Shown piece by piece: positions 1-13,945 of a stretch of 64,000 bases of DNA (the first letter of the stretch is position 1; every line of letters begins with the position of its first letter). Source of the stretch: Haloferax litoreum (GTDB lineage Archaea; Halobacteriota; Halobacteria; Halobacteriales; Haloferacaceae). The stretch spans positions 2,480,001 to 2,544,000 of the forward strand of contig NZ_WKJO01000001.1 of the NCBI RefSeq assembly GCF_009674605.1, given 5' to 3'. The notes below the pieces were generated by a model. That model was not told where the DNA came from, did not search any database, and worked only from the letters and a program-made list of their open reading frames with translations. The translations under genes and the position numbers were made by a program.

Positions 1-683
1 CCAGCGAGGGCGGACCACGTGAGTGGCGTTCGAAGCGCGTCGAAGTCACGGGCGTCGACGAGTTCCCAGACCGGTTTTTCGCGGTCTGCGACGGCGAGTG
101 CGACCATGACCGCGAGGACAGCGAAGCCCTGGAAGAACGGTTCGGCGATGTTGTGGTCGGCAAAGCCGACGAGGCCACGTCGGAGGAACGTCCCCGGGAG
201 GAGCATCAAGATGAGTGCTCCGAAGAGACCACCGAGACGCCCACCGAGGCGTCGTCCGATCAGGAACGTTGGGATGACGACTAGTGCTCCGAAGACTGCG
301 GGGGCAACGAGGAGCGTCTTCGCGACGAGGTCAGCCGATGGGCTACCGAGGCCGACGATGAGGGCGGCCGTCGCAACTATCTGGTCGTAAATCGTCCCGA
401 ACTGACCGACACTCGTCCCGAATGGGAAGTAGGTCCACGGGTCGAACGGCATCGTGCTCGGCCAGTGACGGACTGTGTACGACACCTCTCGGAGGTGGTA
501 CCAGGCGTCGTTTCCGGAGAACAAGACGCTCCCATCTGTGATGAAATTGCTGTACGACTTCAGACGAATAGCCAACATCGTGACTAGTACCACGAGGAGG
601 ACGGGGACGTGGTACCAGTCTTTGAACAGTTCGAGGACCGACGAAGAGTCAGGGCCCTCTGTGTGTTCAGAGTCTGTACTCAT
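1..683 (-). CDS. aglB: Dolichyl-phosphooligosaccharide-protein glycotransferase (oligosaccharyltransferase), 3' part missing
   Basis: Only the first ~227 residues are present; the gene runs off the left edge. AglB is the archaeal STT3-type enzyme that transfers lipid-linked glycans to Asn of surface proteins such as the S-layer glycoprotein, with its active site outside the membrane. Visible here are a short acidic cytoplasmic N-terminus, a first membrane helix (residues ~29-44), the first catalytic loop with GNDAWYH, and a later GFADHN segment matching the second acidic motif of STT3 proteins. Several further hydrophobic helices follow. A TATA-like box 28 nt upstream supports the ATG. It is transcribed away from the glycan cluster, and its position next to sugar-modifying genes is typical of haloarchaeal agl loci. 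Confidence 0.93.
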   Translation of the reverse strand, partial: MSTDSEHTEGPDSSSVLELFKDWYHVPVLLVVLVTMLAIRLKSYSNFITDGSVLFSGNDAWYHLREVSYTVRHWPSTMPFDPWTYFPFGTSVGQFGTIYDQIVATAALIVGLGSPSADLVAKTLLVAPAVFGALVVIPTFLIGRRLGGRLGGLFGALILMLLPGTFLRRGLVGFADHNIAEPFFQGFAVLAVMVALAVADREKPVWELVDARDFDALRTPLTWSALA

Positions 684-714: not shown

Positions 715-963
715 CCTTGTGATGGATGGTTGCTGATTCACTGGTTCCTGATTTCAAACGTAATGTCGGTCTCCGCCGATTCGGGTAGTAATTGCGCAGA
801 CCAAACTAAACATAATTAATAGCACATTTGTCCACAATTTTGAACGAGGGAATTGTTGCTATGTTACTTGATTTCGAACGGTTCGGTGACTCTCGTGGTT
901 TCTTATGTCAACATCGTTTTTCCAATCGCAGTATTCTTGTCGGCACAGACAATGGTGGGTCAT

Positions 964-2124
964 ATGACCGACCGCTTCGTTAGTGTTGCCGAGCCGATAA
1001 TCGGAGAGGAAGAACGAGAAAATATCAATCGGGTGTTAGACAGTGGACGATTTCTTCAGGGTCCATTAGTAGAAGAGTTTGAAAAGAAATGGGCAGACTA
1101 CGTGGGTACTAAACACGCCATCGCTGTGAGTAACGGCACAACTGCAATACAGCTTTCGCTAAACGCGCTCGGTCTCGAGCCTGGTGACGAAGTAATCGTT
1201 CCAAGTCTTACCTTTGGTTCAACAGCAACTGCGGTCGTACACCAAGCCTGTGTGCCTGTTTTCGCTGACATCGATAGAGAAATTTATACGCTCGACCATA
1301 CCGACCTCGAACGATGTCTTTCAGATCGCACAGAAGCTATTCTTCCTGTCCATCTTTATGGCCACCCAGCAGAGATGGACAAAATCCGCTCGTTCGCAGA
1401 CGAGCACGATTTGGCAATCGTCGAAGATGCGGCTCAAGCACACGGCGCTTCATATAAAGGAGACCCTGTTGGTAGCATCGGAGACGTTGGTTGTTTCTCT
1501 TTCTATGCGACCAAGAACATAACTACTGGAGAGGGTGGGATTGTCACCACTGATGACGATGACATTGCAGAGTCTATTCGCCTATTGCGGAGTCACGGTA
1601 TGGCCAACCGTGACGAGCACGTGTCTCTTGGGTATAACTATCGAATGAGTGAACTCAATGGCGCGATTGGTTCCCCGCAAGTTGACCGTCTTCCTGATTT
1701 CAATCGTCGCCGTACCGAAATCACAGAACGTCTTTTCGCTGAGCTCGATGATCTCGATTGGATTCGCCCTGCGACGGTTAGGGATTATGTTGACCACGCG
1801 TACTTTTGGGCACCGTTCGAACTTGATACAACTGCGATAGGAATGTCCGGAAAAGAGGTCTGGAAAAAATTAAAAGAACAAGGTGTTGAAACCCGCCATC
1901 GATATGTGGATCCACTGTATAAACAACCTGTTTTCACCGAACACCGCGGGTTTAATTCTGATTTCCCGTGGTCGGCAAACGAGCATACCCACGATTACGG
2001 TAACCTCTCTTTGCCGAACGTTGAAGCAGTCGCCGGAAAGACAATCGGTCTTCCAAACCACCCCGGTTTAGACGACGAAGAAGTCGATTACGTTATCGAG
2101 ACCGTCCGCGGGTTCGATTCATGA
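964..2124 (+). CDS. DegT/DnrJ/EryC1/StrS-family PLP-dependent sugar aminotransferase
   Basis: A 386-residue enzyme expected to add an amino group to a nucleotide-linked keto-sugar. The order of motifs is that of the family: N-terminal FLQGP, SNGTTA cofactor-phosphate region, EDAAQAHGA, the PLP lysine in YATKN (about K184), and the GYNYRMSE segment. An upstream in-frame extension to a TTG at 853 is hydrophobic and unlike the family, so ATG 964 is preferred; ATG 952 is possible. The gene is first in an AT-richer cluster and ends 1 bp before a convergent gene. Sugar substrate cannot be read from sequence. Its partner may be the epimerase/dehydratase at 3309. Confidence 0.88.
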   Translation: MTDRFVSVAEPIIGEEERENINRVLDSGRFLQGPLVEEFEKKWADYVGTKHAIAVSNGTTAIQLSLNALGLEPGDEVIVPSLTFGSTATAVVHQACVPVFADIDREIYTLDHTDLERCLSDRTEAILPVHLYGHPAEMDKIRSFADEHDLAIVEDAAQAHGASYKGDPVGSIGDVGCFSFYATKNITTGEGGIVTTDDDDIAESIRLLRSHGMANRDEHVSLGYNYRMSELNGAIGSPQVDRLPDFNRRRTEITERLFAELDDLDWIRPATVRDYVDHAYFWAPFELDTTAIGMSGKEVWKKLKEQGVETRHRYVDPLYKQPVFTEHRGFNSDFPWSANEHTHDYGNLSLPNVEAVAGKTIGLPNHPGLDDEEVDYVIETVRGFDS

Positions 2125-2125
2125 G

Positions 2126-3085
2126 CTACTCTGCATAGCCGAGCATTCTGAGTCGCTCGTGCGCTACATCCATGTCTTCGCTGGCGACCTGTTGTGGTTC
2201 TTCGGCAATTATCTGTCTTCGCTCTCCGCATTGATGTTCGAAGTATGGCACGCTGGTTAGTGCAGGGATATAAACACCAAGTGGGTGACCATAAACACGG
2301 ATGGGGAAGGGTTTCGCGAACTCGCCAAAAGCGTTTCCATGATCCGCAGTAACGACGGTTTTCCCTTCGACTTCGGTGAGCAATTCACGAACCGGCGGAA
2401 GTGCTCTCTCCAGATTCAATCGATATGCTTCCCACACCTCTTCTTTTTCCAATTCACCTCGGTCCAACCGTTCGAACGCCGTCGCTTTTCGTTCAGTGTT
2501 GTCCTGCGTTTCCTCGTTCAACGCTTGCCGTCGAATTGCACTAAACTCGCGTAGCCCGAGTTTCTTTTTGCCGATAAACGGTTCGTGTGGTTGAACAAAG
2601 TGGAATATCAATCGCTTATTTGGATATTCTTTGGCAACTCGTCTCGCAGTGTCACACATCGCTTCTGGGGTCACGGTCTGAACGTCGTCGTCCCAATTCT
2701 CTTTCCAAACCGGAATGACATCGTGAAACTGGTCCGGAGACAACAGCGTACTGACATAAGCATTTCCAGTGACGTACACCGTGTCGTGGAACGTTCCATC
2801 ACCAAAGTTTTCTCGCAGGAACCCCGGTGTCCCCGATTCGAGAGATTGTCTCTTCGAGAGCGTTCCGGGAAGATCGAAATCTGAGTAACAGTCCTCGAAT
2901 AAATCGTACCGGCAGGCATCAAGGATGATGAGGTTATCCCAATCACATTCGTGAATGGGACGGGAATCTGATTGACGATATCTCCTGAAGTACTTACTAG
3001 CGACGTTCGACAAGAACCGTTGACGCCACCAGTGTCTGCTTGAGCCGTTCTTTTTGATTTCCGCAAGTGCGTATCTAGGGTTCAT
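2126..3085 (-). CDS. Sulfatase-like (alkaline-phosphatase superfamily) protein
   Basis: A soluble protein of 319 residues. The superfamily pattern is visible: an early metal-binding Asp in ILDACRYD, a candidate nucleophile region SGTPGF, HFVQPHEP, and the C-terminal metal site TADHGN followed by YGHPLG. There is no Cys in a C-x-P-S-R context, so a formylglycine sulfatase mechanism is unlikely. Related genes are common in archaeal glycan clusters and are thought to act on glycan sulfate or phospho-substituents; the reaction here is unknown. The start was placed at MNPRYAL because the upstream 59 in-frame residues are Cys-rich and unconserved in character. Oriented against its neighbours, it converges with the aminotransferase. 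Confidence 0.78.
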   Translation of the reverse strand: MNPRYALAEIKKNGSSRHWWRQRFLSNVASKYFRRYRQSDSRPIHECDWDNLIILDACRYDLFEDCYSDFDLPGTLSKRQSLESGTPGFLRENFGDGTFHDTVYVTGNAYVSTLLSPDQFHDVIPVWKENWDDDVQTVTPEAMCDTARRVAKEYPNKRLIFHFVQPHEPFIGKKKLGLREFSAIRRQALNEETQDNTERKATAFERLDRGELEKEEVWEAYRLNLERALPPVRELLTEVEGKTVVTADHGNAFGEFAKPFPIRVYGHPLGVYIPALTSVPYFEHQCGERRQIIAEEPQQVASEDMDVAHERLRMLGYAE

Positions 3086-3277
3086 GTTGTTTGACTCTAA
3101 CCAACCGGGGTATTGATTACAACGGTTACGTGTGAAGGCCCGACGACCATAGTATTCCACGGTGAAAGCTGAGGTGATTTTGTGAACGTATTGTGCTTCA
3201 CTCAAGAGACAATTGATGCAGTGCAGTATCGCAGAAATGAAGGTGCAATCTAAGCACTGCAATAATTACGGAAGGAA

Positions 3278-3285
3278 TTTATTGG
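3278..3285 (+). promoter_or_regulatory. TATA-like box of the epimerase operon
   Basis: TTTATTGG lies about 27 nt before ATG 3309, in an AT-rich stretch. It fits a leaderless start for the 3309-6410 run of genes. Confidence 0.5.
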
Positions 3286-3308
3286 TGTCTGTAACAGGTA
3301 GTCGTATA

Positions 3309-4301
3309 ATGCGTGTACTCGTTACAGGCGGTGCTGGGTACATCGGTAGCTACATTGTTGAAGAACTACTCCAGAACGGACACGATGTGCGCGTTCTTGA
3401 CTCCATGCTGTGGGGAGATGATGCTTTAGAGCCGTTTAAAGATGATGACAACCTCGAGATTCGTGAGGGTGACATTCGTCACATAGAGGATCTCTCGTAC
3501 GCCATGAAAGGTATGGACGCGGTCATCCACATGGCAGGTATCGTGGGTGATCCTGCGTGTGGAGTGAACGAACAGGCCACACAATCGGTCAATGTCGAAG
3601 CCACAAAATCTCTCGTCGAAATCGCCAAACTCCACGATATCGACCGCCTAATCTTCGCGTCCACGTGTAGTGTTTATGGAGCTAGTGAATTGATGGAACT
3701 AAACGAAGGGTCGTTCCTCAACCCACTCTCTCTCTACGCCAAGTCAAAGATTGACTCTGAAGAGATAATTCTACACGAGACGCATGACAAATTCTCTGAC
3801 GACAATATCACGTCTACAATTCTACGGCTTGGCACAATCTTCGGTTGGTCCCGTCGGATGCGTTTCGACCTTGTTGTCAATATCCTCACAGCAAAGGCAG
3901 TTCTCGAAGGCGACATCCCCGTGTTCGGTGGTGAGCAGTACAGGCCGCTCGTTCACGTTCACGACGCTTCCCGTGCGTTTGTTGCTGTCCTCGAAGCAGA
4001 TGAAGAGAAAGTCGACCACCAAATATTCAACGTTGGTGACAATGACTTAAACTACCAGATCAAAAAGGTTGGCAAAATAGTTGAAAATACGATTGATGAC
4101 GCGGAAGTTCGATTCGTCGAACACAAAGAAGACAACCGCACGTACCGCGTCTCCTTCGACAAAATCAATCACATACTCGGCTGGGAAGCGGAAAAAGACA
4201 TCACTGACGGCGTCGAGGAAATTAAACAGTGGATGGCTGAGGAAGACATTACTGACTACTCTCGGGAAGATATGCGCAACTCCGAATATTCGTACATGTG
4301 A
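3309..4301 (+). CDS. NAD-dependent epimerase/dehydratase (extended short-chain dehydrogenase family)
   Basis: A protein of 330 residues that should epimerise or dehydrate a nucleotide sugar. It begins with a Rossmann dinucleotide motif GGAGYIGS, has MAGIVGDP and the STCSVYG strand, and carries the catalytic YxxxK pair (Y143, K147 in YAKSK). A C-terminal substrate domain follows (RPLVHVHD, FNVGD). ATG 3309 is supported by the TATA-like box and by the glycine motif starting at residue 7; an earlier in-frame start would add 32 unlikely residues. It leads a tight run: its stop is 1 nt before the acyltransferase ATG, and that gene overlaps the second aminotransferase. Together they suggest synthesis of an N-acylated amino sugar. 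Confidence 0.9.
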   Translation: MRVLVTGGAGYIGSYIVEELLQNGHDVRVLDSMLWGDDALEPFKDDDNLEIREGDIRHIEDLSYAMKGMDAVIHMAGIVGDPACGVNEQATQSVNVEATKSLVEIAKLHDIDRLIFASTCSVYGASELMELNEGSFLNPLSLYAKSKIDSEEIILHETHDKFSDDNITSTILRLGTIFGWSRRMRFDLVVNILTAKAVLEGDIPVFGGEQYRPLVHVHDASRAFVAVLEADEEKVDHQIFNVGDNDLNYQIKKVGKIVENTIDDAEVRFVEHKEDNRTYRVSFDKINHILGWEAEKDITDGVEEIKQWMAEEDITDYSREDMRNSEYSYM

Positions 4302-4302
4302 T

Positions 4303-5370
4303 ATGTCTGTAACTGTCCTCTCACAGGAGAACATTACCGAATGGCGAGAGTGGTTCGCGTCACTTCCCGAGGCGGGGCCTTACCACGACCCCGATTATTT
4401 GACGCTACTAAGCGGTGGGTTCGAACAAGAAGAAGAAGTTGCTGAGGCGTTCGTATACGCCAACGGTGACCAATTCGTATACTACCCGTATATTCGACGT
4501 TCACTGTCGGAGGTGCCACATAGTGATGAACTCGACCAAGATATCGAAGACTACTCCGATATCGTCTCGTCGTGGTACTATGGCGGACCGATTCTCTCGA
4601 CGGAAACTGACACGGACATTACCGCAGAGTTTGCCGAGGCATTTTCTGAGTACTGTGTCGATGTGGGAATCGTCTCTGAATTCCTTAGATTTGACCCCAA
4701 CTTACAGAATGCGACTGACTTCGAAGTCCTTAACCCGCGCGTCGAGCGTGAAACGGTCTACGTTGATTTGACCCAGAGCCACAACGCAATCTGGGATAAT
4801 TTTGAGAAACGAAACCGGAATGCGATTAGACAAGCACAGGAAACTGACCTCGTCGTTGAGCCCACGAGGGACCATGCCGACTATCGCGCGTTCTACGATA
4901 TCTATACGAACGCGATGGACGCAAAAAACGCTTCAAAGCACTACCGGTTCCCATTCTCGTTCTTCGAAAAATTATTTGGACAGGAATCGATGTCTACACT
5001 CCTCGTCGCTCGACACGATGAGGACGTCGTTGGAGGTGCAGTCGTCGTCCACGACGGCACTGTTGCTCACGACTACCTCCGTGCGTCGAACCCAGACTAT
5101 TGGGACATGCGGGTCAACAACCTCCTCTGCTACGGTGCGCTGATGCAGATGAAAGAGACTGGTCGCCAACTGTTCGACTTCCAAGGTGGCCGACCCGGTG
5201 TGTTCCGATTCAAAAAAGGGTTCTCGCAGACCGAGCGTGGTGAGTTCTCTGTGGCAACTCGGATTCATATCCCTGAGGTTTACGACTCACTAGTGGGCGC
5301 TGCCCGAGACGAAGGAGTCGATACAGACACGGGTTACTTCCCTGCGTACCGTGTAGCCCAGTCAAACTGA
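4303..5370 (+). CDS. FemAB/GNAT-fold acyl- or aminoacyltransferase
   Basis: A protein of 355 residues resembling the FemAB / lipid II aminoacyltransferase branch of the GNAT fold. Supporting stretches are PYHDPDYLTLL near the N-terminus, an Arg-rich helix RNRNAIRQAQ (about residue 170), GGAVVVHDG, and the C-terminal FDFQGG plus FKKGFSQ that typify the second acyltransferase subdomain. Bacterial relatives add amino acids to peptidoglycan bridges; archaea lack that polymer, so an acceptor made by the neighbouring aminotransferases, an amino sugar, is the likely substrate. It starts 1 nt after the epimerase stop and its TGA overlaps the next ATG by one base. Function is inferred; the fold is fairly secure. 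Confidence 0.8.
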   Translation: MSVTVLSQENITEWREWFASLPEAGPYHDPDYLTLLSGGFEQEEEVAEAFVYANGDQFVYYPYIRRSLSEVPHSDELDQDIEDYSDIVSSWYYGGPILSTETDTDITAEFAEAFSEYCVDVGIVSEFLRFDPNLQNATDFEVLNPRVERETVYVDLTQSHNAIWDNFEKRNRNAIRQAQETDLVVEPTRDHADYRAFYDIYTNAMDAKNASKHYRFPFSFFEKLFGQESMSTLLVARHDEDVVGGAVVVHDGTVAHDYLRASNPDYWDMRVNNLLCYGALMQMKETGRQLFDFQGGRPGVFRFKKGFSQTERGEFSVATRIHIPEVYDSLVGAARDEGVDTDTGYFPAYRVAQSN

Positions 5371-6410
5371 TGATTCCATTAGGCTCTCCACAAATCGACG
5401 AACAAACTGTCTCCCGTGTGAAGGGCCTCCTCGAATCGGGTCTGCTATCGACCGGCGAAGTGGTTTCAGAGTTCGAATCGGAACTCTGTTCTCTTGTCGG
5501 TCGGTCGTACGGTGTCGGAGTCTCTTCTGGGAGCATTGCACTTGAGATGGCTCTGGAGAGCGTATTCGAGTCGGGTGACGCAATCGCAATCTCTCCGTAC
5601 AATTGCGGTGCAGTGTTGTACGCGACTCTCCGTGCTGGTTTGGAACCAGTGTTCGTCGATGCCGAACCGGAGACGTGTTGTATCGACCCTATGCAGCTGG
5701 CAAATGTTGAGACAGAACTCGATGGGATTCTCGTGGCCCACCTGTTTGGTCAGCCTGGAAAGATGGACCAACTTCTGTCCGTCGGGGACGACTTAGGTGC
5801 AACGGTCGTCGAGGATTTTGCACAAGCACCCGGTGCTTCGTATCGCGGGCAGCCTGTCGGGTCCTTCGGTGAAGTGAGTGTTTGCAGCTTTGGTGCGACG
5901 AAAAATCTCACAACAGCAGAGGGTGGTATCATCGTGACGGATAACCAAACGCTCTCTCGCCAAGTTTCGTCTCGCCGCTCCAACACGAGTGACACTGCTT
6001 TCCTCCCCCGAAGCGTGCGAATGAACGATATCGAAGCGGCTATTGGTCTTGGCCAACTTCGAAACTATCCTCGGGTAGTTGAACAGAAACGCCGTGTTGC
6101 AGAGGTCTACCTTAATACTATTACCACAGGTAAATTGCCAAAAACCATCGATGGCTCTACGCACGTGTATCACGGATTTCCGCTTCGACACTCCGAGGCT
6201 GACGAACTCGCAACCCATCTAGAAAAGAATGATATCGGGACGTCTCGACTCTATTCAAACCCTCTTCACAAATACAAAGCGAGTCCAATTACCGACGAGT
6301 CGTTTTCGGTGGCAGAACGATTATCAGACGAGATTGTGTTATTGCCGATACATGGGGGTATAAGTCTCTCTGAAGCCGAAACTGTCTCTTCAATTGTCAA
6401 CGCATTTTGA
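5370..6410 (+). CDS. Second DegT/DnrJ/EryC1/StrS-family aminotransferase
   Basis: A 346-residue paralogue of the gene at 964, but clearly diverged. Present are PLGSPQID at the start, SSGSIALE, VEDFAQAPGASY, the PLP lysine in GATKNLTTAEGG (K178) and MNDIEAAIG. The usual Tyr-Arg pair before this last motif is replaced by SVRMND, and the C-terminal region is short, so substrate choice probably differs from the first copy. The ATG overlaps the acyltransferase TGA (TGATG), implying translational coupling; acyl transfer onto the amino group formed here would be a coherent two-step modification. Confidence 0.85.
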   Translation: MIPLGSPQIDEQTVSRVKGLLESGLLSTGEVVSEFESELCSLVGRSYGVGVSSGSIALEMALESVFESGDAIAISPYNCGAVLYATLRAGLEPVFVDAEPETCCIDPMQLANVETELDGILVAHLFGQPGKMDQLLSVGDDLGATVVEDFAQAPGASYRGQPVGSFGEVSVCSFGATKNLTTAEGGIIVTDNQTLSRQVSSRRSNTSDTAFLPRSVRMNDIEAAIGLGQLRNYPRVVEQKRRVAEVYLNTITTGKLPKTIDGSTHVYHGFPLRHSEADELATHLEKNDIGTSRLYSNPLHKYKASPITDESFSVAERLSDEIVLLPIHGGISLSEAETVSSIVNAF

Positions 6411-6418
6411 ACCAATAA

Positions 6419-6426
6419 TTTAAATA
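6419..6426 (+). promoter_or_regulatory. TATA-like box of the 6451 gene
   Basis: TTTAAATA centred 28 nt before ATG 6451, in the 40-bp gap after the second aminotransferase. It suggests a separate leaderless transcript for the sulfatase-like, glycosyltransferase and flippase genes. Confidence 0.6.
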
Positions 6427-6450
6427 TCATCGATAGATTTCTGAGTAACA

Positions 6451-7713
6451 ATGAACGTAGTTCTCGCATCGATTGATTGTCTTAGACCTGACGCTCTTGA
6501 CAGTCGATTCCTTGATGGACAAAAAACCAAAGGTTCTTTTTATGACACGTGTATCGTTCAAGCCCCATTTACTAGTCCTTCCCACACTTCGATGCTTACG
6601 GGACAGAACCCTCACAATCACGGGGTTCGGTGGCTAATCGATTACCATACGGATGCGACGACGCTTCCAGAGGTCCTTTCGGAACAAGGATACAACACTG
6701 CGGCATTCATTGGCGGCTATCCGCTTCCCACCGGAAACCTAGATGAGGGGTTTGACACGTTCGAACACATCACTTCGATTAAAGACTGGAAAGAAGGCCG
6801 ACAAGAGTTCGGTCCTGCAAACGTCCTAGTAAACCGCGCAATTAATTGGCTTGACGAACACGAGGGTGAGGATAATTTTGTCTTCCTACACTTTTTTGAC
6901 CTCCACTTCACACTTCGTTCAGAGTTCGGCAAGCGCGAGCGTCCGGATTTTGATGGTGATCACATTTACAAGAACGTTGAGCAGTACATCGGCCGACAGA
7001 AGCGCCGGTACTACGAAGAAGCCGAGTTCGTTGGTCGCCAACTCGAAATTCTTCACGAACTTGTCGATATTGACACGACCGTAATCACTGGGGACCACGG
7101 TTCGAAAATGCCTGGTGAACACGGCTACCCGTGGGTGTACGACTCGAAAGGAAACAGGGTCGGTTCGCAGTTCCGTGCTGTTGAACTGTACGATAACATC
7201 ATTCGAGTCCCGCTCATGTTCACCGGCGATGCGTTCTCCAGCCAGACGGTTCACAAGCAGGTCAGGTCCATCGATATCGTACCGACTCTCCTCGACGCAT
7301 TGGACGTTGAACACGACCCTGTCGATGGAATTTCGCTCCTCGACGGTGAATTGCCGGAATTTGCGTACTCCGAAACGTACCATGGGCAACTCACGAAGGA
7401 GAATAAGCTCACACACAAGATGAATGAGAACTACGACTTCGGGTGGAACGAGCTGGACTCGCTCGTTTCGATCCGCTCGAACGAATGGAAGCTTATCTGT
7501 ACGGCCAATGGTGACCTCGAACCAGTTGAACTGTACAACATCGCCCAAGACCCTGGTGAGCACCAGAATTGCATCGACGAACAGCAGGATATCGCCGAAG
7601 AATATTTCGACAAACTACTGTCTCTCATCGGAGACGACGACCAACGGTATGCAACGGCCGATGAGGTCGATAGTGAAGTTCGCCAACATCTCGAAGACCT
7701 CGGGTATATATGA
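6451..7713 (+). CDS. Sulfatase-like alkaline-phosphatase superfamily enzyme with Thr at the nucleophile position
   Basis: A protein of 420 residues with sulfatase architecture: IDCLRPDAL at the N-terminus (metal ligand D9), TSPSHTSMLTG at residues 41-51, then FDLHF and the second metal site TGDHGSKMPGEHGY (about residue 213). In true sulfatases the aligned motif is C/S-x-P-S-R-xxx-TG. Here the modified residue is Thr41 and the Arg is His45, which argues for a phosphatase, phosphodiesterase or phosphotransferase chemistry rather than a formylglycine sulfatase. No signal peptide is seen, so it would act in the cytoplasm, perhaps on lipid- or nucleotide-linked sugars. It overlaps the glycosyltransferase start by 4 nt. 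Confidence 0.85.
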   Translation: MNVVLASIDCLRPDALDSRFLDGQKTKGSFYDTCIVQAPFTSPSHTSMLTGQNPHNHGVRWLIDYHTDATTLPEVLSEQGYNTAAFIGGYPLPTGNLDEGFDTFEHITSIKDWKEGRQEFGPANVLVNRAINWLDEHEGEDNFVFLHFFDLHFTLRSEFGKRERPDFDGDHIYKNVEQYIGRQKRRYYEEAEFVGRQLEILHELVDIDTTVITGDHGSKMPGEHGYPWVYDSKGNRVGSQFRAVELYDNIIRVPLMFTGDAFSSQTVHKQVRSIDIVPTLLDALDVEHDPVDGISLLDGELPEFAYSETYHGQLTKENKLTHKMNENYDFGWNELDSLVSIRSNEWKLICTANGDLEPVELYNIAQDPGEHQNCIDEQQDIAEEYFDKLLSLIGDDDQRYATADEVDSEVRQHLEDLGYI

Positions 7714-8819
7714 ACACTGACGGTCAGAAGGTCTTGCTACTCTCTGACCACCGTTTTTCTGACCCCGGTGGACGGGCAGAGCGGTTCCGAACCCGAGCGA
7801 AGCACCTCGAAGAGTGCGGTTGGCAGGTCGAACTCGGGTACGTATCCGAACCGTACGTACTTCGGTTCCCAATAGAAGTCATCCGCCTCGTTCGAAAGGC
7901 TCGACGTGAGAAGGTCGATGTGGTCAATTCAGTTAACCACCCGTTCCATCTCCACGTCATCGGATTCATCGTTGCACTCGTAGCGGGAGTCCCGTGGCTT
8001 GTCGAATTCCGCGACCCGATGGTCACACACCCCGATATCGAAGACGACGTACTGCTACCTCTCCGACGGTTTGTCGAGTGGTTGTCTGTCCACTTCTCTG
8101 ACAAAGTTGTTTGGGGAGACGGTATTCAAATACCTGATAATTACTACGAGGAAACGTACGCAATCCCTGAAGGAAAAGTGACGAGGTTGCCCTTTGCAGG
8201 GTACAATGCTGAGGCATTCGAGAGCGCAAGCACTCGACAGTACAGCAGGTTTACTGTGACGTACGCTGGTTCGTTCTACGAGGGATGGATTGAACCGTAC
8301 GAGTTCTTAGCAGGCATCGAACAGTATGTGGCCCAATACGACCCAGAACCATTCACAGTCCAGTTCTATGGGGATTGGTCGAGTGAGTACCAGCGTGAAG
8401 TCGAAAAGCGGGGACTTGAAAAATATATCAAGGTTCACGATTTCGTACCACACGACGAGATAATTCCAGTCTTGAAAGGGTCCGACGTTCTCGTGTATCT
8501 CAGTGGAACTAAAACGTGGAACCAGCAAAACGTTCCGTCGAAGATTATGGACTACATCGGAGCCAAGCGGCCAATACTTTCGATTTCTCCCGAAGAATTC
8601 CGCGTCTCGAAACTCATCGAAGAACACCAGTTCGGTATCGTCTCTGACCCGACAGACCCGGAAGATATCGCGGACAAACTCCATGCGCTCCGACGCGGTG
8701 AACGCCGCTTCAGTTCAACGGAGGGCGATGCTGACGACTTCACACGTCGAAAAAAGAACAAGCAACTAGTCTCGATACTTAACGAAATGGTTGGAACTGA
8801 AAACGGGCATGCAAACTAG
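7710..8819 (+). CDS. Glycosyltransferase, GT4-like (GT-B fold)
   Basis: A 369-residue protein with the two-domain layout of GT-B glycosyltransferases. The N-terminal half starts with LLLSDHRFSDPGGRAER, typical of the glycine-rich acceptor loop. The C-terminal half has TYAGSFY, then FVPHDEIIPVLKGSDVLVYLSG and PSKIMDYIGAKRPIL, the usual donor-nucleotide region. It would add a sugar to the growing lipid-linked glycan on the cytoplasmic side. ATGA overlap with the sulfatase-like gene indicates one operon; a 21-nt gap separates it from the flippase. Donor and acceptor are unknown. Confidence 0.87.
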   Translation: MNTDGQKVLLLSDHRFSDPGGRAERFRTRAKHLEECGWQVELGYVSEPYVLRFPIEVIRLVRKARREKVDVVNSVNHPFHLHVIGFIVALVAGVPWLVEFRDPMVTHPDIEDDVLLPLRRFVEWLSVHFSDKVVWGDGIQIPDNYYEETYAIPEGKVTRLPFAGYNAEAFESASTRQYSRFTVTYAGSFYEGWIEPYEFLAGIEQYVAQYDPEPFTVQFYGDWSSEYQREVEKRGLEKYIKVHDFVPHDEIIPVLKGSDVLVYLSGTKTWNQQNVPSKIMDYIGAKRPILSISPEEFRVSKLIEEHQFGIVSDPTDPEDIADKLHALRRGERRFSSTEGDADDFTRRKKNKQLVSILNEMVGTENGHAN

Positions 8820-8840
8820 AAGTACCTCAACCAAAAGCCA

Positions 8841-10241
8841 ATGAGAATCGGACAGAATTCGATCATCGCGTTCCTCTCGGATTTTTTGTCTACGATTCTG
8901 GGCTTCGTCTCTACGATACTCATCGCCCGATTTCTCGGTGCAGATGTCCTCGGTATCTATGGGTTGTTCGTGTCTGTTGTGATTTTCACGGCGAGTATCT
9001 GCTCGTCTGGGTTCAATATCGCTATTAAAAAGCGGATTAGTGAACCTGGCGACAGTGGAAAGATACTCACTGCAGGATTTGTTTCAGAACTCGTCTTGTT
9101 CCTGTTTTTCGCGCTACTTGCGTGGATATTCCGCAGCGCAATCGAACAGTACTTACGAGGAGTGAGTGTCGAAATTCTGATTGGGATTGTCGCTGTTTCT
9201 ATGCTTTCCGGGTTGGTTACGAGCGTACTCGACGGTGAAGGGAGCGTCCATATCTCGTCTTTACTCCGACCGGTCGAAACGGTCGTTCGGAGTTCGTTGC
9301 AGATCGTCCTGATTCTAACTGGCTTCGGCCTGACTGCGCTCATAATTAGCTACTTAATTGCGCTGTCGGTCTCCTCACTCATCGGCATATACTTCATATC
9401 GATACGTGCTCAGGTTCCCTCCCGAGAATCATTCACGTCGATTTTTTCGTTCGCTAAATATTCTTGGATTTCGAACCTCAGAAACCGTGCCTTTAGCTCG
9501 ATGGATATCTTGATTTTAGGGTTCTTCGTCTCTGAGGGACTTATCGGGATTTACAAAGCAGCGTGGAATGTCTCGCTAATTCTCGGACTGTTCAGCAATG
9601 CCGTTAGCCGTGCAATCTTCCCCCAAGTGAGTCAAATCGCGAATGCAGACCCCCGGAAAGCAAAGCAACTGGTCCAAAATGCACTCCCATACGCTGGATT
9701 TCTCATAATTCCTGGCCTATTGGGCGGTGCTGTTATCGGAAAACAGGTGTTAGCGCTATATAGCCCTGAGTTTACCATCGGATACAATATTCTTCTGCTC
9801 TTGATATTAGCACAACTATTGTATAGTTTCTCAACAATTCTCGAGACCGGAATCAATGCTTTCGACAAACCAGAGGTGTCCTTCAGAATCAACGGACTGT
9901 TCATTGTTGCTAACTTCATCCTCAATATCTTGCTGATTCCCATCTTCGGATGGGTAGGTGCGGCACTGGCAACATTCTCTTCGGGTGCCATCTCCCTGTT
10001 GGGATATTGGCACGTCTCTCGTGAGATTATGCCAGTCTCGTTCCCGAAGCGTGATGTTTTCCTACAGCTCATTTCTGCACTGTTGATGGCCATCGTCGTT
10101 TTTCTCTTTGAACAGCTCGTTCCCCAAGGTGAGATATACACCGTAGTGATTGCTGGAATTGGTTCTGTCTGTTACTTCGGAGCACTCATGACACTATCAC
10201 CGAGTTTCAGAGTCATCGTCCGGTCAAACCTCCCAATATAG
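8841..10241 (+). CDS. Polysaccharide/lipid-linked oligosaccharide flippase (MOP superfamily, Wzx/AglR-like)
   Basis: A very hydrophobic 466-residue protein with about 12-14 predicted membrane helices. It begins with the typical NSIIAFLSDFLSTILG helix and ARFLGADVLGIYGLF loop of oligosaccharide flippases, and later has MDILILGFF and GIYKAAWN segments. The family moves lipid-linked glycans across the cytoplasmic membrane; AglR of Haloferax volcanii has been proposed to do this for dolichol-linked sugar. Placement after the glycosyltransferase and near aglB and aglJ supports export of the glycan made by this cluster. It is the last clearly AT-rich gene. Confidence 0.9.
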   Translation: MRIGQNSIIAFLSDFLSTILGFVSTILIARFLGADVLGIYGLFVSVVIFTASICSSGFNIAIKKRISEPGDSGKILTAGFVSELVLFLFFALLAWIFRSAIEQYLRGVSVEILIGIVAVSMLSGLVTSVLDGEGSVHISSLLRPVETVVRSSLQIVLILTGFGLTALIISYLIALSVSSLIGIYFISIRAQVPSRESFTSIFSFAKYSWISNLRNRAFSSMDILILGFFVSEGLIGIYKAAWNVSLILGLFSNAVSRAIFPQVSQIANADPRKAKQLVQNALPYAGFLIIPGLLGGAVIGKQVLALYSPEFTIGYNILLLLILAQLLYSFSTILETGINAFDKPEVSFRINGLFIVANFILNILLIPIFGWVGAALATFSSGAISLLGYWHVSREIMPVSFPKRDVFLQLISALLMAIVVFLFEQLVPQGEIYTVVIAGIGSVCYFGALMTLSPSFRVIVRSNLPI

Positions 10242-11678: not shown

Positions 11679-11699
11679 GCCCGTCTGTTTTGCCGCGTA

Positions 11700-12608
11700 A
11701 TGGATTACGCCGACGTGTGCGTCCTCATCCCCACCTACAACGAGGCGGAGACCATCGCCGACGTCGTCGCCGACTACCGAGACGAGGGATTCAGCAACGT
11801 CCTCGTCATCGACGGTGACTCCACGGACGGGACGCGTGAACTCGCCGACGAGGCCGGTGCGCGCGTGGTCGTTCAGTCCGGCTCCGGGAAGGGCCAAGCG
11901 GTCAGAGAGGCCGTCGAGAAGTACGTCGAGGCAGAGTACGTGCTCATGCTCGACGGCGACGGAACCTACGAGGCGGCGGACGCGACGAAGATGCTCGAAC
12001 CGTTGGAGGAGGGGTACGACCACGTCATCGGCAACCGGTTCGCCGACATGCGAGCAGGGGCGATGACGAGGTTGAACCAGATTGGAAACAAAATCATCAA
12101 CCGGGCGTTCGGACTCATCCACGGACAGGACTTCAGAGACATCCTCAGTGGCTACCGGGCGTTCACGCGCGAGTCGTTCCTCCAGATGACGCTCACGTCG
12201 GACGGGTTCGGTATCGAGACGGAGATGGCCGTCGAGTGTGCGAAACGCGGGTTCAAGACGACTGTCGTCCCCACGACGTACTACCCCCGACCGAGTGGGT
12301 CGAACACGAACCTTCATCCAATCCGCGACGGCGGAATCATCTTCCTCGAACTGTACCGACGGGCGAAGACCAACAATCCGCTGTTCTACTTCGGGAGTGT
12401 CGGACTCGCGTCGACGGCGGCCGGTCTCGGCCTCGCACTCTACGTCGGATACGAGTGGGTCGTCCGCTCGATTTCACACGAGGTTATCGCTGTCGTCTCC
12501 GCGGCGGGTATCCTCTTCGGCGTCCAACTGCTGATGTTCGGTGTCCTCTCGGACCTCATCCTCTCACTCCATCGGGACCAGATGAAGCGTATCGAAGAAC
12601 TGGAGTGA
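11700..12608 (+). CDS. aglJ: Dolichyl-phosphate hexosyltransferase AglJ
   Basis: A 302-residue GT2 enzyme that, in Haloferax volcanii, attaches the first hexose to dolichol phosphate in the S-layer N-glycosylation pathway. Motifs run CVLIPTYNEAET, VIDGDSTDGT, the DxD site MLDGDGTYE, then DILSGYRAF and the GFGIETEMA region typical of DPM/AglJ-type enzymes. Two C-terminal membrane helices (about residues 235-285) anchor it. ATG 11700 is fixed by a TATA box at the leaderless distance; upstream in-frame codons are not needed. The gene is compositionally native, unlike the AT-rich cassette, so the first step is conserved while later sugars vary. Confidence 0.92.
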   Translation: MDYADVCVLIPTYNEAETIADVVADYRDEGFSNVLVIDGDSTDGTRELADEAGARVVVQSGSGKGQAVREAVEKYVEAEYVLMLDGDGTYEAADATKMLEPLEEGYDHVIGNRFADMRAGAMTRLNQIGNKIINRAFGLIHGQDFRDILSGYRAFTRESFLQMTLTSDGFGIETEMAVECAKRGFKTTVVPTTYYPRPSGSNTNLHPIRDGGIIFLELYRRAKTNNPLFYFGSVGLASTAAGLGLALYVGYEWVVRSISHEVIAVVSAAGILFGVQLLMFGVLSDLILSLHRDQMKRIEELE

Positions 12609-12678
12609 CGCGCGCCGTCGGTGTCGGATTATCGCGTTACTGACGCTGAATCGAGGGGTACTGCCGTCTCCGTTCCCT

Positions 12679-13005
12679 TCAAAATGGGACGAGAGACCGA
12701 AGTCGTGCGACGAGACTCTTCGACGCCTTGGCGCGGAACTGCTCGAACACCGGGTGCAGTGACTCCAGCAGGTCACGACGCGACTCGAACTGTGATTTCT
12801 GAGTTTCTTCGAGCACCTCGTCTATCGTGACCGTGTTCCCCGCGGCGTCGATGGGGACGGCGACGTGGTCGAGCGCCTGCGCAATCGTCTGCGCGTCGGC
12901 CGGGTAGTCGATATCGGCGGCGTCGACATCGTCGGACAGTGCCGCGATGCCGAACTCGATAGTGTCAGGGTCCGACGTCTCGTTCTGCGGCGGTCTCGCT
13001 GCCAT
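12679..13005 (-). CDS. Small haloarchaeal protein (DUF5789-like)
   Basis: An acidic 108-residue protein. The N-terminal half (NETSDPDTIEFGIAALSDD, then DYPADAQTI) resembles a haloarchaeal family I recall as DUF5789, in which this segment precedes a small alpha/beta domain; the C-terminal part is helical and Lys/Arg rich (FRAKASKSLVARLRSL). No catalytic motif or membrane segment is visible. It converges with aglJ across 70 bp and is divergent from the RHH gene at 13138. Function unknown. Confidence 0.72.
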   Translation of the reverse strand: MAARPPQNETSDPDTIEFGIAALSDDVDAADIDYPADAQTIAQALDHVAVPIDAAGNTVTIDEVLEETQKSQFESRRDLLESLHPVFEQFRAKASKSLVARLRSLVPF

Positions 13006-13137
13006 CAGATAGAACTACGAAGTGCGGACGGGAAAAACCCCCGACCATTCGTGACGACTTCGTGTCGTCCAGTTCATCTGTGCCGCACCGGTCTTCGCAC
13101 CGTTGGGATTAACCCCCACGAGCGCCAGGTGCCAGCC

Positions 13138-13350
13138 ATGACCGAGTACACGACGGTTTCTATCCCGAAAGAGTTGGCCGGGCGCGTCGAGGAGACGCTC
13201 GAAGGAACGACGTTTTCGAGTACGAGTGACCTCGTGCGGTTCCTCTTGCGAAGTATCGTCATCCAGCACGAACGGTCGGGCGGCGAACTCTCCGAATCCG
13301 AGTTCCAAGAGATTGCCGAGCAGTTGACCGACCTCGGGTATCTGCGGTAG
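13138..13350 (+). CDS. Ribbon-helix-helix (CopG-like) DNA-binding protein
   Basis: A 70-residue protein with the RHH pattern: a short beta strand EYTTVSIPKELA, helix A (GRVEETLEG), and helix B beginning STSDLVRFLLRSIV. The C-terminal tail (ESEFQEIAEQL..LGYL) could mediate dimerisation. Such proteins are usually dimeric transcription regulators or antitoxins. No toxin-like gene is adjacent, so a stand-alone regulator is more likely. The in-frame sequence before this ATG is not RHH-like. Confidence 0.8.
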   Translation: MTEYTTVSIPKELAGRVEETLEGTTFSSTSDLVRFLLRSIVIQHERSGGELSESEFQEIAEQLTDLGYLR

Positions 13351-13426
13351 GCGCGACCGACTGGTCTCGTTTCGAGAGGAGACCACGCGGAGAGGACACT
13401 CGTCCAGCGCGAGGTGCGTTCCGTGC

Positions 13427-13945
13427 TCAGGCGAGTTCTTCTTCTGGTGGTTCCGCGTCGACGACGACGAGGTCGAGTTTCCGTCCTGCGCGGTCGAACG
13501 CGGCGAGGGTCTCTTCATCCCACGGTGGGACAGCGAGGAGAACGACGGCGGCCAAATCGTCGCGCTCGGTGAGTTCGAACGGCCCTTGCGGGTGCGTGAT
13601 GAAGCGTGCACGACCACGGCCTGCCGGCGTTCCGAGGTCGACACCGAAGATGGCGCTGACCGACCCGCCCGCTTCGGCCATGTAGAAGTGCGTGAGCACG
13701 GGAGTCTCGGGGTCGATTCCGAGGTCGTCGTCGAAGTCTCCGGCGGGCGTCGGCGCGAGCACCAGATTCGTCTCCTGTGGTTCGGCCGCTTCAGCCATGT
13801 CGAGGAGGACCTCGACCAGTCCCCGAGTCACGTGGATACGCCGGCGGGAACCCGGGCTATCTGGTTCGACTGCTGTCGAGTGAGCCGAGTCGCCCTCGTC
13901 GGTCGTGTGGCCGCCATCACCGACGACGCGCCGCTGGTCAGTCAT
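13427..13945 (-). CDS. Conserved haloarchaeal protein with a JAMM/MPN-like pattern, probably degenerate
   Basis: A 172-residue protein whose first ~40 residues are acidic and disordered. After that the order HVTRGLVEVLLDMAEAA, PQETNLVL, THPQGPF and TERDD resembles the JAMM (MPN+) deubiquitinase/desampylase fold: helix, P-x-E-x-x-x-L strand, HxHP loop and SxxD. The first zinc His of HxHP is Ile here and the Ser is Thr, so a complete zinc site is not visible. The C-terminal FDRAGRKLDL also resembles haloarchaeal JAMM proteins. Assignment is tentative. Its ATG overlaps the TGA of the MBL-like gene (one base), so the two are co-translated. Confidence 0.6.
   Translation of the reverse strand: MTDQRRVVGDGGHTTDEGDSAHSTAVEPDSPGSRRRIHVTRGLVEVLLDMAEAAEPQETNLVLAPTPAGDFDDDLGIDPETPVLTHFYMAEAGGSVSAIFGVDLGTPAGRGRARFITHPQGPFELTERDDLAAVVLLAVPPWDEETLAAFDRAGRKLDLVVVDAEPPEEELA

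What the first reader, a model, noticed from the sequence alone, without database searches (positions are those of the whole stretch)
4303..6410. FemAB-type acyltransferase coupled to a sugar aminotransferase in an archaeon
FemAB enzymes are best known for peptidoglycan bridges, absent in archaea. Here the gene sits between epimerase (1-nt gap) and aminotransferase (1-nt overlap). That context predicts acylation or aminoacylation of an amino sugar in the surface glycan, a modification I do not know as described for haloarchaeal N-glycans.
Basis: partly seen in the sequence, partly recalled or inferred. Interest (0 to 1): 0.55.

Follow-up and report, generated by a model that had tools for sequence, protein, structure and literature searches.

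The report
Archaeal enzyme acylating N-glycan amino sugar
A salt-loving archaeon carries, next to its protein-glycosylation machinery, a relative of bacterial cell-wall enzymes that probably attaches a small acyl group, most likely an amino acid taken from a charged tRNA, to an amino sugar destined for its surface glycans.

Summary
The gene is real: 355 codons (4303-5370), 1-nt gap to the epimerase, 1-nt overlap with the aminotransferase. It lies in a low-GC island beside the oligosaccharyltransferase AglB. It belongs to PF13480. A subfamily profile matches only Fem-type aminoacyl-tRNA enzymes in the PDB (9 of 9 sequences), and the FemX catalytic lysine is kept (Lys304, 14 of 14). The constant partner is not the adjacent aminotransferase (AT2, in 2 of 6 ortholog loci) but AT1, 2.2 kb upstream: all 5 Fem genomes in a 391-genome sample have AT1, found in only 10. 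AT1 genomes without Fem usually carry a sugar N-formyltransferase instead (4 of 5, against 0 of 6 with Fem). Distant relatives sit beside sugar aminotransferases in other archaea and bacteria. Best reading: N-acyltransferase for the AT1-made amino sugar, donor probably aminoacyl-tRNA. In C. difficile flagellin, glycine on Fuc3N is a published precedent. Fold and donor are not shown; the AlphaFold model failed (pLDDT 46).

The parts
1..683 (-). 5' part of aglB (oligosaccharyltransferase), which continues upstream of the window as L002:15561-18683
   Evidence: ORF; PF22627 AglB_core-like, PF02516 STT3, PF18079 AglB_L1
964..2124 (+). AT1, DegT-family sugar aminotransferase; the aminotransferase whose presence tracks Fem
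   Evidence: PF01041 381.5 bits; start ATG 964 read; tight orthologs in 10 of 391 class genomes, including all 5 with Fem
3309..4301 (+). Epi, NAD-dependent sugar-nucleotide epimerase/oxidase-like SDR, 330 aa, YAKSK motif
   Evidence: PF01370 143.2 bits; best solved relative 6vo6, E 1.3e-33; motif
4303..5370 (+). Fem: FemABX-like N-acyltransferase, 355 aa, Phe303-Lys304 in the FKKxF motif, C-terminal FPxYR motif
5370..6410 (+). AT2, second DegT-family aminotransferase, overlapping Fem by 1 nt; present in 2 of 6 ortholog loci
   Evidence: PF01041 238.7 bits; counterpart L080:7283-8347, 44%
6451..7713 (+). sulfatase/alkaline-phosphatase superfamily protein, ortholog in 5 of 6 Fem loci, with Thr at the place of the sulfatase Cys/Ser
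   Evidence: PF00884 81.3 bits; neighbours; motif TSPSHTSMLTG
7710..8819 (+). glycosyltransferase
   Evidence: PF13692, PF00534
8841..10241 (+). polysaccharide/oligosaccharide flippase
   Evidence: PF13440, PF01943
11694..12608 (+). GT2 glycosyltransferase, by position and family possibly aglJ (name recalled, not tested)
   Evidence: PF00535 73.9 bits

Best explanation
Fem is a FemABX-like N-acyltransferase of the AglB-linked glycan pathway. Epi makes a keto sugar nucleotide, AT1 turns the keto group into an amine, and Fem caps that amine with an acyl group before the sugar enters the lipid-linked glycan. The donor is most likely an aminoacyl-tRNA, so the cap would be an amino acid held by an amide bond, with Lys304 doing the work of FemX Lys305. 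In related clusters the same amine would be capped by other chemistry (formyltransferase, hexapeptide acyltransferase, perhaps an ATP-grasp ligase). Shown here: gene, family, conservation of the catalytic lysine, association with AT1, exchange with formyltransferases. Inferred: amine acceptor at nucleotide-sugar level, role of Epi, order of steps. Least secure: the tRNA donor.
For: (1) Association: 5 of 5 Fem genomes in the 391-genome class sample have a tight AT1 ortholog, found in only 10 of 391 (hypergeometric 3.4e-9). In the sixth ortholog genome (Salinibaculum, L008 = G426) AT1 (79%) lies about 0.66 Mb from Fem, so physical linkage alone does not explain it. (2) Exchange: among 11 AT1 genomes, a relative of the L084 sugar N-formyltransferase (E <= 1e-15) is in 0 of 6 with Fem and 4 of 5 without (Fisher p 0.015); class rate 60 of 391. 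In G111 (L084) and G225 (L086) it is the gene next to Epi and carries PF00551 + PF18216; its solved relatives include enzymes named as formyltransferases of 4-amino and 3-amino sugar nucleotides. In G164 and G308 the closest such gene lies elsewhere in the genome. The fifth genome, G246, has a hexapeptide-repeat protein just upstream of AT1; L085 (G308) has a PylC-like ATP-grasp protein next to Epi. (3) Distant subfamily members: a DegT gene lies within 5 kb in 12 of 15 subfamily loci opened (5 of 6 haloarchaeal, 4 of 4 in other archaea of the phylum, 3 of 5 bacterial) versus 0 of 7 control PF13480 loci (Fisher p 0.0007). L122 has dehydratase, aminotransferase, Fem and UDP-GlcNAc 2-epimerase in a row with NeuB and a cytidylyltransferase, and L123 the same order judged by sequence start and BLAST: Fem stands where LegH stands in the legionaminic-acid pathway of PMC6137143 (passages). 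(4) Donor: profile A4 finds 9 PDB sequences at E <= 10, all FemX, FemA or 'aminoacyl-tRNA-dependent peptide synthase' (FemX 2.5e-15). Lys304 is invariant in 23 of 23 (A2) and 14 of 14 (A4) and is aligned with the lysine I count as 305 in FemX 1ne9/1xe4; [quoted passage not shown] The acyl-CoA loop [QR]xxGx[GA] is absent in 6 of 6 orthologs.
Against: No biochemical or glycan data. AlphaFold gave pLDDT 46, pTM 0.42, with low confidence from residue 126 on, so the double-GNAT fold is not shown. The window protein alone scores 15.0 bits against PF02388 FemAB (cut-off 24), and its best single-sequence PDB hit is insignificant (E 0.52). The mixed profile A2 also gave weak, insignificant matches to acyl-CoA GNATs (3f8k E 0.058, 2i79 0.14). 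FemX-like proteins of unknown donor exist, such as HfsK (PMC5362036). Deinococcus actinosclerus has Fem directly followed by a formyltransferase, so the two are not always exclusive. Two of five bacterial loci and one of six haloarchaeal loci have no aminotransferase nearby. L124, counted among the archaea, is a 6.8-kb contig of 65% GC whose Fem groups with a Deinococcus one and may be bacterial contamination. One control locus (H24) has a GlmS transaminase within 5 kb, not counted because it is not DegT. The co-occurrence numbers treat genomes as independent, though such islands move horizontally.
Confidence: 0.55

Rival explanations
1. Fem is an acyl-CoA-dependent N-acetyltransferase (or uses another acyl-CoA) acting on the same AT1-made amino sugar, doing the job of LegH, PglD or PseH with a Fem-like scaffold.
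For: Same context evidence as the best explanation; LegH in Halorubrum PV6 is described as an N-acetyltransferase (PMC6137143, passages); hexapeptide proteins next to AT1 in L087 and in the L083 cluster suggest acetyl-type caps; PF00583 matches 4 of 14 members weakly (best E 0.023).
Against: No [QR]xxGx[GA] loop in 6 of 6 orthologs; all 9 PDB sequences matched by profile A4 are Fem-type aminoacyl-tRNA enzymes.
Confidence: 0.25
2. Fem transfers an acyl or aminoacyl group to some other acceptor of the surface glycan or lipid carrier (a hydroxyl, or the finished lipid-linked glycan), and its company with AT1 only reflects a common island.
For: HfsK is thought to modify the polysaccharide itself (PMC5362036, passages); the island has a foreign composition, 49.7% GC against 63.0% at 12650-64000.
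Against: AT1 is retained, unlinked, in the Salinibaculum genome; formyltransferases, whose solved relatives are named for amino-sugar nucleotides, stand in for Fem.
Confidence: 0.13
3. The adjacent AT2, makes the amine that Fem acylates; AT1 makes a second amino sugar.
For: 1-nt overlap in the window and the same order in L080; both AT2 copies keep the SFGATK stretch of the PLP lysine (role of the lysine recalled).
Against: AT2 is absent from the other 4 of 6 ortholog loci, while AT1 is present in 6 of 6 genomes.
Confidence: 0.07

Closest known systems
Clostridium difficile type B flagellin glycan cluster (CDR20291_0242-0247)
   Same: A FemAB-superfamily acyltransferase gene in one cluster with an FdtB-type aminotransferase and an ATP-grasp gene; the glycan carries Fuc3N N-acylated by the glycine of a taurinyl-Ala-Gly unit, and the acyltransferase is the authors' candidate for that step (PMC5207245, PMC5207246; passages read, abstracts among them).
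   Different: Bacterial, O-linked, 3-amino sugar, peptide rather than single residue; the authors could not make a mutant of the FemAB gene; its sequence was not compared here.
Orf11 of BD-12 (streptothricin-like antibiotic) biosynthesis
   Same: Fem-like enzyme that puts glycine from Gly-tRNA on streptothrisamine, an amino-sugar intermediate, in vitro (described in PMC12945691, passages; the original paper is not held).
   Different: Small-molecule antibiotic, not a glycan; not compared by sequence here.
FemX of Weissella viridescens (PDB 4ii9, 1ne9)
   Same: Best solved match of the subfamily profile (E 2.5e-15); its catalytic lysine aligns with Lys304.
   Different: Acceptor is UDP-MurNAc-pentapeptide, a peptidoglycan precursor; the C-terminal FPxYR motif of this subfamily lies beyond the aligned range.
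N-formyl-legionaminic acid pathway of Halorubrum sp. PV6
   Same: N-acylated amino sugar in a haloarchaeal N-glycan (PMC6137143, passages).
   Different: Formylation and predicted LegH acetylation; no Fem mentioned in the passages seen.
HfsK of Caulobacter crescentus
   Same: FemX-like GNAT protein acting on a surface polysaccharide (PMC5362036, passages).
   Different: c-di-GMP-binding holdfast protein; donor and acceptor unknown.
Threonine on the Methanococcus N-glycan
   Same: An amino acid on an archaeal N-glycan, enzyme not identified as of 2010 (PMC2952790, passages).
   Different: Threonine sits at position 6 of an N-acetylmannuronic acid; an amide to that carboxyl (my recollection) would be the opposite polarity to Fem chemistry.

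Membership tests
PF13480 Acetyltransf_6 | score above the curated cut-off (22 bits) | tested here: met
   56.2 bits
FemAB sensu stricto (PF02388) | score above the curated cut-off (24 bits) | tested here: not met
   window protein 15.0 bits; its relative in L122 passes with 35.6 bits; 13 of 14 subfamily members match at E <= 1
FemABX-type aminoacyl-tRNA transferase | catalytic lysine equivalent to FemX Lys305 | tested here: met
   Lys304 invariant in 14 of 14 and 23 of 23, aligned with the FemX lysine
FemABX-type aminoacyl-tRNA transferase | two GNAT domains | tested here: inconclusive
   AlphaFold model poor; the wide profile A2 aligns with FemX over positions 14-302, the subfamily profile A4 only over 139-330
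FemABX-type aminoacyl-tRNA transferase | use of aminoacyl-tRNA | not testable with these tools
   needs biochemistry
PEP-CTERM FemAB (TIGR03019) | score above cut-off (260.35 bits) | tested here: not met
   51.0 bits
Mig-14 | match to the Mig-14 Pfam family | tested here: not met
   not among the two Pfam families matched at E <= 1 by the window protein
acyl-CoA GNAT | [QR]xxGx[GA] pyrophosphate-binding loop (motif recalled) | tested here: not met
   absent in 6 of 6 orthologs
N-acyltransferase step of an amino-sugar pathway (LegH/PglD/PseH slot) | gene placed with the sugar aminotransferase of the pathway | tested here: met
   12 of 15 subfamily loci opened have a DegT gene within 5 kb, controls 0 of 7

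The most novel reading that the evidence does not exclude
A cross-domain subfamily of Fem-like enzymes, marked by Lys304 and a C-terminal FPxYR motif (both invariant in 14 of 14), aminoacylates amino-sugar nucleotides with amino acids from charged tRNAs. It replaces the usual acetyl- or formyltransferase step in archaeal N-glycan, nonulosonic-acid and bacterial capsule pathways, so that the tRNA pool of protein synthesis feeds the glycans of the archaeal surface. A divergent DegT-like partner found with it in six of nine non-haloarchaeal loci would further process the attached group.
Probability: 0.4. Interest if true: 0.65.

Novelty: new variant of a known kind. Interest (0 to 1): 0.5.

Why it matters
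Archaeal N-glycans are unusually varied, and the enzymes for some substituents are unknown. If Fem adds an amino acid to an amino sugar, archaeal N-glycosylation would draw on aminoacyl-tRNA, a link that I know (from recollection and PMC12945691) for bacterial peptidoglycan, lipids and some antibiotics, and by inference for one bacterial flagellin glycan. The exchange of Fem with formyltransferases around a fixed aminotransferase also gives a simple, testable picture of how haloarchaea vary a surface epitope by swapping one capping enzyme; surface variation is proposed to affect virus sensitivity and mating in Haloferax (PMC5867893, abstract).

Tried and rejected
AlphaFold on the four-sequence alignment A1 gave a poor model (pLDDT 46), so no fold search was run. 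No phage record matched. AT2 as the essential partner was rejected by its absence in 4 of 6 loci. Assigning the position of the amine was abandoned: AT1 resembles QdtB and WbpE as well as perosamine synthase and ArnB. A peptidoglycan or pseudomurein role was not pursued, as the gene lies beside aglB. Passages searched in PMC8305020 and PMC7226565 held nothing on the point; PMC7848895 mentions FemAB domains in sponge-symbiont Thaumarchaeota in general terms, and PMC11078007 uses 'aminoacyl' only for tRNA synthetases.

Full report
Observation. Fem encodes 355 aa and hits PF13480 with 56.2 bits. The stretch 853-10241 has 49.7% GC against 63.0% at 12650-64000. Directly upstream, running out of the window, is an oligosaccharyltransferase with AglB core, STT3 and AglB_L1 domains; further upstream are a nucleotidyltransferase and a UDP-glucose dehydrogenase. 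Downstream are a flippase and GT2 glycosyltransferases. A Haloferax study defines the main N-glycosylation cluster as the genes between aglB and aglJ (PMC5867893, first half of its Results read); the island has that position if the GT2 at 11694-12608 is AglJ, a name I recall rather than test.

Orthologs. A profile of four Fem sequences finds relatives in 94 of 391 class genomes at E <= 1e-8, but only 5 with full-length scores of about 500 bits or more; with Salinibaculum litoreum (L008) there are six orthologs in all (window, L006, L007, L008, L080, L081). In their neighbourhoods Epi directly precedes Fem in five of six, and an ortholog of the sulfatase-like gene follows in the same five (after AT2 in window and L080). 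AT1 lies upstream of Epi in window, L006, L007 and L080, one gene beyond Fem in L081, and elsewhere on the L008 chromosome (79%). AT2 is found only in the window and L080 (44%). So AT1, not AT2, is the constant companion: 5 of 5 Fem genomes in the sample have a tight AT1, which occurs in 10 of 391 (p 3.4e-9 with genomes treated as independent).

What stands in for Fem. Five AT1 genomes lack a Fem ortholog (G111, G225, G164, G308, G246). In G111 and G225 the gene next to Epi, in convergent orientation, is a sugar N-formyltransferase (PF00551 + PF18216), whose solved relatives include PseJ, VioF and formyltransferases named for amino-sugar nucleotides. Searching 11 AT1 genomes with it gives 4 of 5 without Fem and 0 of 6 with Fem; the class rate is 60 of 391. 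In G164 and G308 the closest copy (42% and 47%) is not in the AT1 cluster; the G164 cluster holds a hexapeptide protein and a second, distant formyltransferase type, and in G308 a PylC-like ATP-grasp gene lies 18 nt beyond Epi. G246 has no match in this search but a hexapeptide protein directly before AT1. Small numbers and horizontal transfer make the statistics suggestive rather than firm (Fisher p 0.015; binomial p 0.002), but the picture is that the AT1 product needs a cap on its amine, and Fem is one of several capping enzymes.

Wider family. Full-length relatives exist on plasmids of Cetobacterium, Azospirillum, Priestia and two Deinococcus. In Cetobacterium the order is dehydratase, LegC-family aminotransferase, sugar transferase, Fem; Priestia and D. 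proteolyticus also have an aminotransferase close by; Azospirillum and D. actinosclerus do not. A search of 226 same-phylum genomes matched 11 at E <= 1e-20, among them G000, G181 and two genomes of the control type. I opened the four best new ones (three full-length, one partial): all four have a DegT gene next to Fem. One of these, L124, is a 6.8-kb contig of 65% GC and may be bacterial contamination. L122 combines PF02719 dehydratase, DegT, Fem and UDP-GlcNAc 2-epimerase with NeuB and a cytidylyltransferase, and L123 shows the same order by sequence: the gene set of legionaminic-type acids, with Fem in the place of the N-acetyltransferase LegH (pathway as described in PMC6137143, passages). 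Control loci from the larger haloarchaeal PF13480 group show no DegT neighbour in 7 of 7 (one has GlmS). A tree separates the 14 subfamily sequences from 17 control-type sequences with 100/99 support, with long-branch warnings.

Chemistry. The subfamily profile A4 matches nine distinct PDB sequences at E <= 10, all Fem-type or aminoacyl-tRNA-dependent (best FemX 2.5e-15); the smaller profile A3 gave the same top eight plus two insignificant unrelated ones, and the mixed profile A2 also some insignificant acyl-CoA GNATs. Phe303-Lys304 of the window aligns with the Phe-Lys pair that I count as 304-305 in 1ne9; Lys304 is invariant in 14 of 14 and 23 of 23, and position 303 is Phe or Tyr throughout. 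[quoted passage not shown] The CoA loop motif is absent in 6 of 6 orthologs. I take aminoacyl-tRNA as the likelier donor, but the window protein falls below the PF02388 cut-off on its own, and the predicted model was too poor to test the fold.

Precedent. C. difficile type B flagellin carries Fuc3N whose amine is acylated by the glycine of a taurinyl-Ala-Gly unit; the locus holds a FemAB-superfamily gene, an ATP-grasp gene and an FdtB-type aminotransferase, and the acyltransferase is the authors' candidate for the acylation (PMC5207245 and PMC5207246, passages). This is the nearest known system and makes the proposed chemistry plausible for protein-linked glycans. Literature searches in the held open-access library: FemAB with archaea and N-glycan, 0 papers; Haloferax with agl and FemAB, 140 papers with at least two terms, none of the 10 listed with FemAB; FemAB with legionaminic, only the C. 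difficile paper; aminoacyl with S-layer glycoprotein and haloarchaea, 2 papers, one checked and irrelevant, one not opened. I found no report of a Fem-like enzyme in archaeal glycan synthesis there; subscription papers are mostly outside it.

Verdict. A real and conserved gene; the acylation of an amino sugar is well supported by context (I put it at about 0.75), the aminoacyl-tRNA donor less so (together about 0.55). It is a new archaeal variant of a known kind of chemistry.

Noticed in passing
L121:9771-10934, L122:10725-11834, L123:6299-7390, L124:1687-2748, L101:7794-8891, L102:7838-8800: A divergent DegT-like protein, in four of the six without any Pfam match at E <= 0.01, accompanies Fem in 6 of 9 non-haloarchaeal loci opened. 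AT2 of the window might be its haloarchaeal counterpart; function unknown.
   Followed up: partly
window 6451-7713: The sulfatase-like protein has TSPSHTSMLTG where sulfatases have C/S-x-P-S-R (recalled), so a threonine stands at the nucleophile; it may be a transferase rather than a sulfatase.
   Followed up: no
window 2126-3262 (-): Protein between AT1 and Epi without a Pfam or NCBIfam match at E <= 0.001 but with counterparts in L083, L086 and, split into two ORFs, L007.
   Followed up: no
G000:C3:56992-57399, 99489-100932, 146052-147579 (stretches L096-L098): Five further PF13480 matches on the third contig of the host genome, four of them as two neighbouring pairs. Stretches fetched but not annotated.
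   Followed up: no
L103:4986-6962: Deinococcus actinosclerus has Fem directly followed by a formyltransferase, as if the aminoacyl group or a second amine were formylated.
   Followed up: no
L121:8633-9769: The Fem copy of G596 is interrupted by two in-frame stops, TAG and TAA, next to an open aminotransferase frame.
   Followed up: no
L086:6252-7825 and L083 around 11959-13526: A second formyltransferase type paired with a PIG-L deacetylase-like gene, 67-69% identical between the two loci: possible deacetylation followed by formylation.
   Followed up: no
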